DNA from: Geodermatophilus nigrescens
GTDB taxonomy: Bacteria; Actinomycetota; Actinomycetes; Mycobacteriales; Geodermatophilaceae
Direction of reading: 5' to 3'
Assembly: GCF_900129495.1 (NCBI RefSeq)
Contig: NZ_FQVX01000004.1
Coordinates: 1 to 64,000 of the forward strand
DNA length: 64,000 nucleotides
Part shown: in pieces, positions 23,727 through 54,663 of the stretch
Position numbering within the stretch: the stretch's first letter is position 1
How the letters are laid out: each line of letters begins with the position of its first letter
The notes under the pieces: generated by a model
The model's input: only the letters and a program-made list of their open reading frames with translations
Database searches by the model: none
Told to the model about the DNA's origin: nothing
Position numbers and translations under genes: made by a program

Positions 23727-23803
23727 GGAAGGACCCCGTCCCCCTCACCGCTCGCGAGCTCGCGGTGAGCCTCCGGACGGGGCCGTTCCAGCGCGTCACC
23801 ACG
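23727..23803. repeat. dispersed palindromic element, copy A
   Basis: Begins directly after the ino1 stop. Outer arms CCCCGTCC/GGACGGGG (23734-23741, 23775-23782) and inner arms CTCACCGC/GCGGTGAG (23744-23751, 23762-23769) form an interrupted hairpin. The conserved tail GGCCGTTCCAGC-GCGTCACCACG follows. Three related copies occur in this window. It could also terminate ino1. Confidence 0.8.
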
Positions 23804-23877
23804 TGAGCAGGCCCGTCCCCCGACCCGGGGGGCGGGCCTGCGGCCTGTCGGGGGTCCGGTGCCGCCCCCGGGCTGCC

Positions 23878-23883
23878 TACGCT
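23878..23883 (+). promoter_or_regulatory. -10 box of a leaderless lipoprotein gene
   Basis: TACGCT is followed by 7 bases and the ATG at 23891. Transcription would start at the initiation codon. Confidence 0.5.
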
Positions 23884-23890
23884 GGCCCGC

Positions 23891-24646
23891 ATGCCGCGCC
23901 GCCTGCTCGCGACCGCGCTGGTCCTGCTCGGCGTCGGGCTGACCGGCTGCACGGACGAGGGCGCCGATCGGCAGCCCGGCGACCCCGTGACCGCCGAGGA
24001 GGCCGAGGTGCTCGCCGGCCTGCTGGCGCGGGAGACCGAGGAGGGCGGCGCGGACGTCGTCGTCACCGCGCCCTTCGGCGAGGAGGGCCTGCTCACCCTC
24101 ACCGGCGAGGTCGACCTCGCGGGCTCGGCGGGCCGGGCGCGCGCCGTGACCTCCTACGGCGACGGGCGGCCCGACGACGTCCGCACGCTGTTCTTCACCC
24201 GCGAGCAGGTCTGGTTCGGCGACGTCCCCGGCCTGGGCGAGGCGCTCGCGGCCGCCGGCCTCCCCGACGTCCCGTTCGTGCGCCGCCCGCTGGCCACCGG
24301 CCCCGACGCGGTGCCGCTGGGCGACGTCCTCGTGCAGGTGGTGCTCAACCTGGGCGCGGAGGACGCCGACGACGCCGGCGCGTTCCTCGGTGCGGTGACC
24401 TGGGAGGGGCAGCGGTCGATCGACAGCCGGCTCGCGACGGTCTACGCGTCGGACGCGGGCTGGTCGGTGGCCGTCGACGACACCAGCGAGCTGCTGCTGC
24501 AGTACGAGACGGAGCTGCCCGGCCAGGGGACCGACGTGACGGTGACGCTGGCCGACCACGGCGCGCGGACGATCGCGCTGCCCGGTGAGGACCAGTCCCT
24601 CGACGCGACCGCGCACCCGGAGGTGGCCGCGGCCCTGGGCATCTGA
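23891..24646 (+). CDS. lipoprotein, LppX/LprG-like
   Basis: A 251-residue exported lipoprotein. The signal peptide MPRRLLATALVLLGVGLTGC ends in a lipobox LTGC, with Cys20 as the lipidated residue. The mature part (TLTGEVDLAGSAGRARAVTSYGDG; LFFTREQVWFGDV) resembles the half-barrel lipoproteins LppX/LprA/LprG that carry lipids in mycobacteria; the match is by pattern and tentative. No catalytic motif is visible. A TACGCT hexamer sits 7 bases upstream of the ATG and no ribosome site exists, implying a leaderless mRNA. It is followed by a terminator shared with the convergent YqgE gene. Confidence 0.75.
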   Translation: MPRRLLATALVLLGVGLTGCTDEGADRQPGDPVTAEEAEVLAGLLARETEEGGADVVVTAPFGEEGLLTLTGEVDLAGSAGRARAVTSYGDGRPDDVRTLFFTREQVWFGDVPGLGEALAAAGLPDVPFVRRPLATGPDAVPLGDVLVQVVLNLGAEDADDAGAFLGAVTWEGQRSIDSRLATVYASDAGWSVAVDDTSELLLQYETELPGQGTDVTVTLADHGARTIALPGEDQSLDATAHPEVAAALGI

Positions 24647-24677
24647 CGGCGCCTCGCACCGGGGCCCGGACATGGGA

Positions 24678-24712
24678 GGAGGGGGCGGCCTCTTCCCCAG
24701 ACCGCCCCCTCC
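24678..24712 (+). terminator. terminator of the lipoprotein gene
   Basis: Arms GGAGGGGGCGG (24678-24688) and its complement (24702-24712) pair perfectly over 11 bases with a 13-base loop; flanking CCCGGA/TCCGGG adds a lower stem. It lies 31 bases beyond the stop. Confidence 0.8.
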
Positions 24713-52350: not shown

Positions 52351-53511
52351 ATGGAGTTCCGGGTGACACGCGAGGTGCTCGCCGATGCCGTCGCGTGGAC
52401 GGCGCGCAGCCTCCCGCCGCGGCCCTCGGTGCCGGTGCTCGCCGGCATCCTGCTCGAGGTCGACGGCAGCCAGCTGTCGGTGTCCGGCTTCGACTACGAG
52501 GTCTCCGCCCGCGCGGAGGTCGACGTGCAGGCCGCCGAGGCCGGCCGCGTGCTGGTGCCGGGCCGGCTGCTCGCCGAGATCACCCGCGCGCTGCCCCCGC
52601 AGCCGGTCGACATCCGCGCCGAGGGCCCACGGCTGGCCATCACCTGCGGCAACGCGCGGTTCAGCCTGCCGACGCTGCCGGTCGAGGACTACCCGTCCCT
52701 GCCGTCGATGCCCTCGTCGGCCGGCGTGGTCGACAGCGACGTCTTCGCCGAGGCGGTCGGCCAGGTCGCCGTCGCCGCCGGCCGTGACGACACCCTCCCC
52801 ATGCTCACCGGCGTCCGCCTGGAGATCGACGACGACCGGGTGACCCTGGCGGCCACCGACCGCTACCGGCTCGCGGTGCGCGAGTTCGCCTGGCGGCCGG
52901 ACACCCCGGGCACCTCGGCCGCGGTGCTGGTCCCGGCGCGCACGCTCGCCGACGCCGCCCGCACGCTCACCAGCGGCCCGGAGATCACCGTCTCGCTGTC
53001 CTCCGGCGGCTCGGGCGAGGGCATCCTGGGCCTGTCGGGCAAGGACCGGCAGACCACCACCCGGCTGCTCGACGCCGAGTTCGTCAAGTACCGCGCGATC
53101 ATGCCGAGCGAGTCCGCGGCCAACGCCACGCTCCCGGTCGCGCAGTTCACCGACGCCGCCAAGCGCGTGGCCCTGGTGGCCGAGCGGGGCACGCCCCTGC
53201 GCTGCGAGTTCACCCCCGGCCAGGTCACCCTGCGCGCCGGCGGCAGCGACGACGAGGGGCAGGCCGAGGAGCGCTGCGACGTCGACTTTGACGGCGACCC
53301 GCTGACGATCGGCTTCAACCCGACGTTCCTGCTCGACGGGCTCGCCGCGGTGCACACCGGCCGCGCGCGGATGGACTTCACCAGCCCGCTCAAGCCCGCG
53401 GTGCTCTCCGGCGTCGAGGACCCGGCCACCGACGACGACGGCGCCTCGCGCCCGGCCGAGCGGCCCGGCAGCTACCGGTACCTGATCATGCCGGTGCGTC
53501 TCCCCGGCTGA
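52351..53511 (+). CDS. dnaN: DNA polymerase III beta clamp
   Basis: A 386-residue ring protein that tethers the replicative polymerase. It begins MEFRVTREVLADAVAWTARSL. Domain boundaries follow the usual three-fold pattern. It contains FVNSLPTL-like FSLPTLPVEDYPSLP and TDRYRLAVREFAWRP, and ends with RYLIMPVRLPG, the cleft that binds partners. The ATG at 52351 has no strong ribosome site immediately upstream, although GGGGTGGGTCGGTC precedes it. It follows the oriC region and is followed by gnd. Confidence 0.97.
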   Translation: MEFRVTREVLADAVAWTARSLPPRPSVPVLAGILLEVDGSQLSVSGFDYEVSARAEVDVQAAEAGRVLVPGRLLAEITRALPPQPVDIRAEGPRLAITCGNARFSLPTLPVEDYPSLPSMPSSAGVVDSDVFAEAVGQVAVAAGRDDTLPMLTGVRLEIDDDRVTLAATDRYRLAVREFAWRPDTPGTSAAVLVPARTLADAARTLTSGPEITVSLSSGGSGEGILGLSGKDRQTTTRLLDAEFVKYRAIMPSESAANATLPVAQFTDAAKRVALVAERGTPLRCEFTPGQVTLRAGGSDDEGQAEERCDVDFDGDPLTIGFNPTFLLDGLAAVHTGRARMDFTSPLKPAVLSGVEDPATDDDGASRPAERPGSYRYLIMPVRLPG

Positions 53512-53528
53512 TCCCAGACCGCAGGACG

Positions 53529-53544
53529 GGGCCCGATCGGGCCC
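53529..53544 (+). terminator. palindrome after dnaN
   Basis: GGGCCC-GATC-GGGCCC is a 6-base stem with a 4-base loop, 18 bases beyond the dnaN stop. A second GC-rich hairpin follows around 53567-53590. A weak terminator or attenuator before gnd. Confidence 0.4.
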
Positions 53545-53651
53545 TCCACGGAGGTGTCCCGGGCCGTGCGCCCGGGCACCGCACCCCGCGGGCACCCGCA
53601 CCGGCGCGTGCGCCCGCATGACGACGACGGTGTGCGACGAGAGGAAGAACC

Positions 53652-54584
53652 GTGCAGCTGGGGCTGATCGGGCTGGGCAAGATGGGCGGCAACATGGCCG
53701 AGCGGGTACGCCGCGCCGGCCACGAGGTCGTGGGGTACGACCGGGCGCCCGGCAAGCGGGACGTCGACAGCCTCGAGGGGCTCGTCGGCGCGCTCTCGGC
53801 ACCGCGCGTGGTGTGGGTGATGGTCCCCGCCGGGGAGCCGACCCGGCAGACGGTGCGCGAGCTCGGTGAGCTGCTCGAGCCCGGTGACGTCGTCGTCGAC
53901 GGCGGCAACTCCAAGTTCACCGACGACAAGGTGCACGCCGAGATGCTCGGCGAGAAGGGCATCGGCTACGTCGACGCCGGCGTCTCCGGCGGCGTGTGGG
54001 GCCTGGAGAACGGCTACGCGCTGATGGTCGGCGGCTCGGCCGACGACGTCGCGAAGGTGCAGCCGGTCTTCGACGCGCTCAAGCCGCCCGCGCCCACCGA
54101 CGAGTCGGGCGAGGCGATCCCGGGCGCCGGCTTCGTGCACGCCGGCCCGGTCGGGGCCGGCCACTACGCGAAGATGGTCCACAACGGCATCGAGTACGCG
54201 CTGATGCAGGCCTACGGCGAGGGCTACGAGCTGCTGGCCGCCGTCGACCTGATCGAGGACGTCCCGGGCGTCGTCGCCTCGTGGACCCAGGGCACCGTCA
54301 TCCGCTCGTGGCTGCTGGACCTGCTGGTCCGCGCGCTGCAGGAGGACCCGGCCCTCGAGCGCATCCGGGGCTACGCCGAGGACTCCGGCGAGGGCCGCTG
54401 GACGGTCATGGAGGCGATCGACAACGCCGTCCCCATGCCGACCATCGCGGCGTCGCTGTTCGCCCGCTTCTCCTCCCGCCAGGAGGACTCGCCGACCATG
54501 AAGGCGGTCGCCGCGCTGCGCAACCAGTTCGGCGGGCACGCCGTCCAGGCGATCCAGGCGCAGGAGGTCGAGCGCCCGGCGTGA
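53652..54584 (+). CDS. gnd: 6-phosphogluconate dehydrogenase (short form)
   Basis: A 310-residue enzyme that oxidatively decarboxylates 6-phosphogluconate to ribulose-5-phosphate in the pentose phosphate pathway. It starts with MQLGLIGLGKMGGNMAERV, an NAD(P)-binding motif. It has VDGGNSKFTDD, DAGVSGGVWGLENG and GHYAKMVHNGIEYA, the catalytic segment. The length fits the short GntZ-like type (about 300) rather than the 470-residue form. The GTG at 53652 has GAGGAAG upstream. Streptomyces and several mycobacteria carry gnd between dnaN and recF as here. A dispersed palindrome copy follows the stop. Confidence 0.95.
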   Translation: MQLGLIGLGKMGGNMAERVRRAGHEVVGYDRAPGKRDVDSLEGLVGALSAPRVVWVMVPAGEPTRQTVRELGELLEPGDVVVDGGNSKFTDDKVHAEMLGEKGIGYVDAGVSGGVWGLENGYALMVGGSADDVAKVQPVFDALKPPAPTDESGEAIPGAGFVHAGPVGAGHYAKMVHNGIEYALMQAYGEGYELLAAVDLIEDVPGVVASWTQGTVIRSWLLDLLVRALQEDPALERIRGYAEDSGEGRWTVMEAIDNAVPMPTIAASLFARFSSRQEDSPTMKAVAALRNQFGGHAVQAIQAQEVERPA

Positions 54585-54663
54585 TGGAGGACCCCCCTGC
54601 CCCCCACCCCTCGCAGGCTCGCGGCGGGGCCCTGCAGGGGGGCCGTTCCAGCACCTCACCACC
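54585..54663. repeat. dispersed palindromic element, copy D
   Basis: Outer arms CCCCCCTGC (54592-54600) and GCAGGGGGG (54634-54642) pair perfectly. Relative to copy C the third pair changes from T-A to C-G. The tail is GGCCGTTCCAGCACCTCACC. It fills the gnd-recF gap almost entirely. Confidence 0.82.

What the first reader, a model, noticed from the sequence alone, without database searches (positions are those of the whole stretch)
23727..54663. Four-copy dispersed palindromic element with a covarying stem, always directly after a gene
Copies sit after ino1 (23727-23803), trxB (38454-38494, shortened), trxA (38918-38985) and gnd (54585-54663). Each starts 0-18 bases beyond the stop codon, has a GC-rich interrupted hairpin, and ends in GGCCGTTCCAGC(A/G)C(G/C)TCACCAC. 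Three of four are in the + orientation next to + genes. Between copies C and D a stem pair changes T-A to C-G, keeping pairing, and the copy A stem sequence differs while pairing is kept. This is structure-level conservation. The sequence shows it directly; that it is a family spread over the genome, a miniature mobile or REP-like element, or a common terminator type is inference.
Basis: partly seen in the sequence, partly recalled or inferred. Interest (0 to 1): 0.72.

Follow-up and report, generated by a model that had tools for sequence, protein, structure and literature searches.

The report
Mobile hairpins inserted at stop codons
A short folded DNA repeat has spread through one family of bacteria, usually landing right at the stop codon of a gene and apparently supplying part of a new one; what moves it is unknown.

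Summary
The four copies are real and belong to a large family: about 70 copies in this Geodermatophilus genome, 89 in G. aquaeductus and at least 138 in a third congener. Single species of three other genera have 0-5, while their sampled relatives have 20-76. A covariance model finds the family in 47 of 57 family genomes and rarely outside. The hairpin covaries strongly across copies.

It is mobile. All four window copies are absent at the orthologous sites of G. aquaeductus. Copies nest inside copies, and remnants of older copies follow newer ones.

In this genome 63 of 73 copies lie within 6 nt of a stop codon, in sense. Stop identity is locked to spacing (TGA+4/+1, TAG+2/+5). It differs from the empty ortholog's stop at 12 of 33 sites, against 17 of 157 control sites, so the element probably helps make the stop.

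The REP-transposase idea fails: Y1_Tnp in 0 of 57 genomes. A T-tract terminator and a link to reverse transcriptases are not supported. Best reading: a non-autonomous mobile hairpin with stop-codon-precise insertion, mobiliser unknown. It works like REP or MIRU elements; on the features tested it belongs to neither.

The parts
23727..23803 (+). Copy A, after ino1 (TGA 23724-23726): GAAGG 23728-23732, outer and inner hairpin, GGCCGTTCCAG 23781-23791, tail GCGCGTCACCAC
   Evidence: sequence; CM hit 83.7 bits; absent at the orthologous stop in G. aquaeductus
38454..38494 (+). Copy B, after trxB (TGA 38451-38453): shortened, inner hairpin lost; GGCCGTTCCAG 38471-38481 and full tail kept
   Evidence: sequence; CM hit 29 bits; absent in G. 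aquaeductus
38913..38992 (+). Copy C, after trxA (true stop TGA 38897-38899): CTGACGGAGGACC left end with its own TGA at 38914-38916, hairpin, GGCCGTTCCAG 38972-38982, diverged tail
   Evidence: sequence; CM hit 86.6 bits; absent in G. aquaeductus
54585..54663 (+). Copy D, between gnd (TGA 54582-54584) and recF (start 54678): hairpin core 54586-54645, tail GCACCTCACCAC
   Evidence: sequence; CM hits 87.3 and 75.5 bits; copy present in 15 and absent in 15 of 30 gnd loci read

Best explanation
This is a non-coding, non-autonomous mobile hairpin element of Geodermatophilaceae (core about 60 nt, with or without a tail of about 20 nt, GGCCGTTCCAGCACsTCACC). It is copied to new places in sense orientation, as a rule exactly at the stop codon of a protein gene. 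Its left end (T-GAnGRAGG, T-GAAGG or TA-GAAGG) completes or replaces the stop codon, so the host protein usually keeps its length. Shown: dispersal, covariation between copies, empty orthologous sites, nesting, stop precision, and locking of stop identity to spacing. Inferred: an unidentified trans-acting enzyme works on the folded strand (ssDNA or RNA), so that only well-paired copies breed; that would explain why arms covary between copies while single copies decay.
For: Own genome: 73 CM hits at E up to 1. Core-only model: 70 own, 138 in G037 (150 candidates scored, near saturation), 89 in G023, but 0 in G019, 4 in G039, 5 in G003. Family: 47 of 57 genomes.

Covariation: 94.2% of cells paired vs 81.7 shuffled, score 0.302 vs 0.098, slid structures at most 0.053. 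Core on 61 copies: 0.352 vs 0.111, slides at most 0.102.

Empty sites: 12 of 12 own copies with both flanks matched in the fetched 400 kb of G023 have no sense copy there, all four window copies included; in 11 of the 12 the upstream match runs to within 12 nt of the end of its query, that is up to the stop. gnd: 15 with, 15 without of 30, the stop at the same codon in 30 of 30.

Stop: GGACC within 6 nt of a stop in 63 of 73. TGA by distance mod 3 is [8,101,7], TAG [2,1,39]. Stop differs at 12 of 33 filled/empty sites vs 17 of 157 empty/empty, P = 0.0007.

Nested copies in G038 and L262, L270, L273, L288, L312. By pattern, a second right half follows 20 of 85 tails vs 2.5% of random positions.
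Against: No mobilising gene was found. No target-site duplication was seen, and the right boundary varies (GGCCG or the tail). No larger parent element shows in the own genome, as far as looked: 32 of 35 exact left-half matches are CM hits and the other three look unrelated by eye (its one-mismatch list was cut and not analysed). Natural stop switching between species at about 90% identity blurs the junctions. 8 of the 33 filled/empty rows were doubtful by eye; without them 10 of 25, P = 0.00075. Six of 24 sites filled in both species also differ in stop. At gnd nearly all filled and all empty loci have TGA, so that site does not show stop replacement. The pairs were chosen to end within a few codons of each other, so they cannot test protein length.
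Confidence: 0.68

Rival explanations
1. A functional 3'-UTR RNA element: the hairpin directly behind the stop protects the message, hinders ribosome re-initiation at the next gene, or marks mRNA ends, and selection keeps it there. Spread is slow and secondary.
For: Sense orientation, tight stop spacing and covariation. 44 of 73 copies sit before a close co-directional gene. Predicted RNA structure just after a stop is reported to go with lower translational coupling (passage in PMC12548453).
Against: Presence is patchy at the same gene (15 of 30 gnd loci; 12 of 12 empty in G023). G019 has none although seven other sampled species of its genus have 27-76 hits. In eight shared copies 24 pairs differ, 13 staying paired and 11 not.
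Confidence: 0.2
2. Copying without a transposase: template switching or gene conversion between hairpins moves the unit and swaps stems, so spread is a by-product of replication at palindromes.
For: Stem pairs differ together between orthologous copies at 95% flank identity (L074/L209). Tandem tails and stacked right halves occur.
Against: Conversion needs homology, but new sites share no evident flanking sequence. Entry at an empty stop is not explained.
Confidence: 0.12
3. A common transcription terminator type of this family.
For: Strong hairpins behind stop codons.
Against: No T run at copies B, C, D. Many copies lie between close co-directional genes such as gnd-recF and trxB-trxA. Absent at many orthologs.
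Confidence: 0.05
4. REP elements moved by a REP-associated tyrosine transposase (RAYT).
For: Short dispersed palindromes with GRAG just 5' of the hairpin (resemblance recalled).
Against: Y1_Tnp in 0 of 57 family genomes, control positive in 5 of 14.
Confidence: 0.02

Closest known systems
REP / REPIN elements with RAYT transposases (features recalled)
   Same: Short palindromes, many copies per genome, mostly at gene ends, covarying stems
   Different: No Y1_Tnp in 57 sampled genomes; sense orientation and stop-precise insertion; left end takes part in the stop codon
MIRU of mycobacteria (Supply 1997; recalled, paper not seen)
   Same: Sense orientation, often between co-directional genes, proposed insertion at stop-codon sites (DTGA)
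   Different: MIRUs are recalled as lacking dyad symmetry; here a strong covarying hairpin, TAG as well as TGA, another family
MITEs and ERIC-type palindromes (recalled)
   Same: Non-coding, short, dispersed, imperfect inverted-repeat ends
   Different: No parent transposon and no target duplication found; insertion at the stop codon

Membership tests
REP/RAYT | Dispersed short palindrome in many extragenic copies | tested here: met
   73 copies, 69 behind ORF ends
REP/RAYT | Y1_Tnp-type transposase in genomes that carry the element | tested here: not met
   0 of 57 genomes; controls positive in 5 of 14
REP/RAYT | Conserved head tetranucleotide 5' of the hairpin (recalled) | tested here: inconclusive
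   GAAG/GGAG precedes the stem in most rows, but it also pairs with TTC of the tail class
MIRU | Same orientation as the upstream gene (recalled) | tested here: met
   69 of 73 copies by script
MIRU | Insertion at stop-codon sites (recalled) | tested here: met
   63 of 73 within 6 nt of a stop; TAG sites too
MIRU | No dyad symmetry (recalled) | tested here: not met
   Covarying hairpin of 18-21 pairs
MIRU | Sequence similarity to mycobacterial MIRUs | not tested
   no MIRU sequence was fetched
MITE | Terminal inverted repeats | tested here: met
   GGACC/GGCC pair in nearly all copies; the outer GAA/TTC pairs only in the class with the tail, 81.4% of cells
MITE | Target-site duplication | tested here: inconclusive
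   none seen by eye in filled/empty pairs, whose flanks are only about 77-97% alike
MITE | Related autonomous transposon with the same ends | tested here: inconclusive
   none in the own genome: 9 of 34 GGCCGTTCCAG places lack the hairpin and look like coding chance matches, left halves as; other genomes not searched for this
Intrinsic terminator | GC hairpin followed by a T run | tested here: not met
   0 terminator-like sites in 38300-54800, with copies B, C and D
Rfam RNA families | Match at the gathering score | tested here: not met
   0 matches in the window; weaker matches not searched

The most novel reading that the evidence does not exclude
A mobile element whose target is the translation stop itself: the insertion machinery reads or is led to stop codons, for example through terminating ribosomes, transcription-coupled nicks, or an enzyme that cuts within TGA and TAG. 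The element regenerates a stop codon with its own left end, so it can enter many genes without changing the protein.
Probability: 0.22. Interest if true: 0.88.

Novelty: new variant of a known kind. Interest (0 to 1): 0.6.

Why it matters
If true, it is a nearly harmless way for a mobile element to fill a gene-dense genome: it enters at the stop codon, leaves the reading frame intact, and puts a stable hairpin behind genes as basic as ftsZ, groES and trxA. It would also mean an unknown mobiliser in a well-sampled bacterial family, and it gives natural present/absent pairs for measuring what a hairpin behind a stop does to operon expression.

Tried and rejected
REP/RAYT: Y1_Tnp in 0 of 57 genomes. 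Reverse transcriptase as mobiliser: RVT_1 in 29 of 57 genomes; of the 35 genomes with 65 or more hits 17 have one and 18 do not, and of the 12 with 0-5 hits 6 have one. Larger parent element: none seen in the own genome (limits given above). Carriage by plasmids or phages (copy D) or viral contigs (exact tail): no hits. tRNA or tmRNA genes near seven loci with odd copies: none. T-tract terminator: none. Clustering in the window: weak. Pairing of CTG before the stop with CAG in the tail was looked at by eye only.

Limits and rows left out. Genome searches score 14-150 candidates per genome, so counts near 75 or 150 are lower bounds and negatives in the order and phylum samples are soft. Gene ends are script calls from codon G+C, not annotation. 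In one search, 44 of 208 regex copies had no scored stop within 12 nt and are not in the stop table; some regex hits are chance (one search shows examples). A loose baseline showed stop usage alike in filled and other genes; a stricter one gives TAG in 41 of 154 filled and 101 of 843 other ends. The downstream gene calls are rough. At least one of the 20 tail followers (the second in L267) looks like chance.

Literature: nine of ten searches used; no listing showed a paper on this element. Passages of PMC12548453 and PMC11187229 were seen; other papers only as listings. REP, MIRU, ERIC and MITE facts are recalled.
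Full report
OBSERVATION. The four copies are present. A model built from 23 copies of the own genome, A, C and D included (A1, R1), recovers these four and no others in the window at E up to 0.1. The tail motif has 3 window matches against 0.01 expected. Copy C has a diverged tail and lies beyond the trxA stop; copy B has lost its inner hairpin. 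All four are on the + strand. Genes: ino1, trxB, trxA, gnd, recF. No Rfam family reaches its gathering score in the window.

FAMILY. R1 finds 73 places in the genome of the window; 73 distinct sequences were re-extracted and aligned (A2). Core: GRAGGACC, a variable arm of about 7 nt, a C run, an inner stem with loop CTCGC-nn-GCTCG, CCCTGC, the complementary arm, GGCCG. One class goes on with TTCCAGCACsTCACC, the other does not. A core-only model from 61 copies of several genera (A5, R2) finds 70 in the own genome, 138 in G037, 89 in G023, 25 in G012, 18 in G036, 5 in G003, 4 in G039 and 0 in G019.

DISTRIBUTION. 47 of 57 sampled genomes of the family, 9 of 12 genera. In the order sample 17 of 121, two of them outside the family: G109 has two copies in the first few kb of an 89 kb contig, G118 one on a 21 kb contig, so misbinned sequence is possible. 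Twelve other genomes of the order have none with R2. In the phylum sample only the own genome, 1 of 296, with 14 candidates scored per genome. A scan of named genomes with the exact tail printed 80 loci, 79 named as Geodermatophilus, Blastococcus, Modestobacter, Klenkia or Geodermatophilaceae and one Loktanella locus without a visible hairpin. No hit in plasmids, phages or viral contigs.

STRUCTURE. On A2, 94.2% of cells pair against 81.7% in shuffles, 14 of 21 pairs have changes on both sides, score 0.302 against 0.098, slid structures at most 0.053. On A5, 96.2% against 82.2%, score 0.352 against 0.111, slides at most 0.102; 10 of 18 pairs change on both sides, a value that 21 of 500 shuffles reach. 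Single copies fold only moderately better than shuffles: z = -2.32, -2.19 and -1.12 for A, C and D, -0.17 for B. Against a simple reading of continuing selection: in eight copies shared with G037, 24 pairs differ, 13 staying paired (8 by changes on both sides) and 11 not, while 15 of 167 unpaired positions differ; the two-sided changes lie in three of the eight copies.

MOBILITY. In the 400 kb of G. aquaeductus that I fetched, 14 own-genome copies have an upstream match and 12 have both flanks; none of the 12 has a sense copy there. One of them (L161) faces a reverse copy belonging to the converging gene. Of the two without a downstream match, one (L127) has a copy with another stem in G. aquaeductus. 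All four window copies are among the 12. At gnd, 15 of the 30 loci read carry a copy or a damaged copy and 15 do not, counted by eye. Of the 30 best G037 copies, 8 share their upstream gene with a copy of the own genome. A tail-less copy sits inside another copy at gnd in G038 and at L262, L270, L273, L288 and L312. Within 4 nt of 20 of 85 tails (18 of 79 loci) a further right half begins by pattern, against 2.5% at random positions; L298 shows three layers. In the layered loci L285, L289, L296, L298, L306, L309 and L316 the complete copy abuts the stop and the remnants follow.

STOP CODON. 69 of 73 copies lie in sense behind an ORF end; GGACC starts within 6 nt of the stop in 63, with 4 nt in 36. 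In 208 pooled regex copies, 164 have a scored stop within 12 nt; TGA stops fall by distance mod 3 as 8, 101, 7 and TAG stops as 2, 1, 39. If native stops were simply kept, identity and spacing should be independent. At orthologous sites the stop differs between filled and empty at 12 of 33, against 17 of 157 for empty/empty pairs of like mean identity (90.3 and 89.6%), P = 0.0007; without 8 doubtful rows 10 of 25, P = 0.00075; sites filled in both differ at 6 of 24. Filled TAG ends have A at -2 in 29 of 41 against 21 of 101 other TAG ends, filled TGA ends in 27 of 109 against 77 of 729; C precedes TGA in 98 of 135 filled against 625 of 1057 others in a looser set, P = 0.003. So there is a target preference or a wider exchanged tract. 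Copy C carries a TGA 14 nt beyond the real stop. In G037 (L217) a copy lies three codons before the place of the stop of the G000 ortholog, and the frame reads through the hairpin to a TGA behind it. These point to a left end that holds stop sequence of its own and to a target that is usually, not always, the stop. Of 63 upstream ORFs listed, 30 were scanned: mixed functions, among them FtsZ, GroES, S-adenosylhomocysteine hydrolase and a sigma factor.

MECHANISM. Shown: dispersal, covariation between copies, present/absent sites, nesting, stop precision. Inferred: copying in trans of a folded strand by an unknown enzyme. Not RAYT, not tied to reverse transcriptases. An effect on the host is open: PMC12548453 reports that predicted structure right after a stop goes with lower coupling (passage), and 44 of 73 copies precede a close co-directional gene. 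A terminator role has no support here.

VERDICT. A real, mobile, nearly family-restricted hairpin element with unusually exact placement at stop codons. It works like REP or MIRU elements; membership in either fails on a tested feature.

Noticed in passing
L192 (G019) and L179 (G034), gnd 3' ends: Other palindromes built on ATGGCCAT sit behind the gnd stop in these two genomes, possibly another dispersed repeat.
   Followed up: no
L254 positions 2216-2307 (-): Four head-to-tail copies of the 24-nt tail in Modestobacter excelsi behind one hairpin.
   Followed up: no
L217 (G037) near 1501-1591: A copy before the place of the native stop; the frame runs through the hairpin and gives a new C-terminal end.
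   Followed up: yes
L120/L373 (G109:C17) and L376 (G118:C6): Copies in two genomes of other families, on an 89 kb and a 21 kb contig: transfer or misbinned sequence.
   Followed up: partly
L161 and L239 (G023, 9973-10063 -): At one converging gene pair the two species carry copies on opposite strands.
   Followed up: no
G000:C2:797113-797736 (-): A single reverse transcriptase domain gene in the own genome.
   Followed up: no
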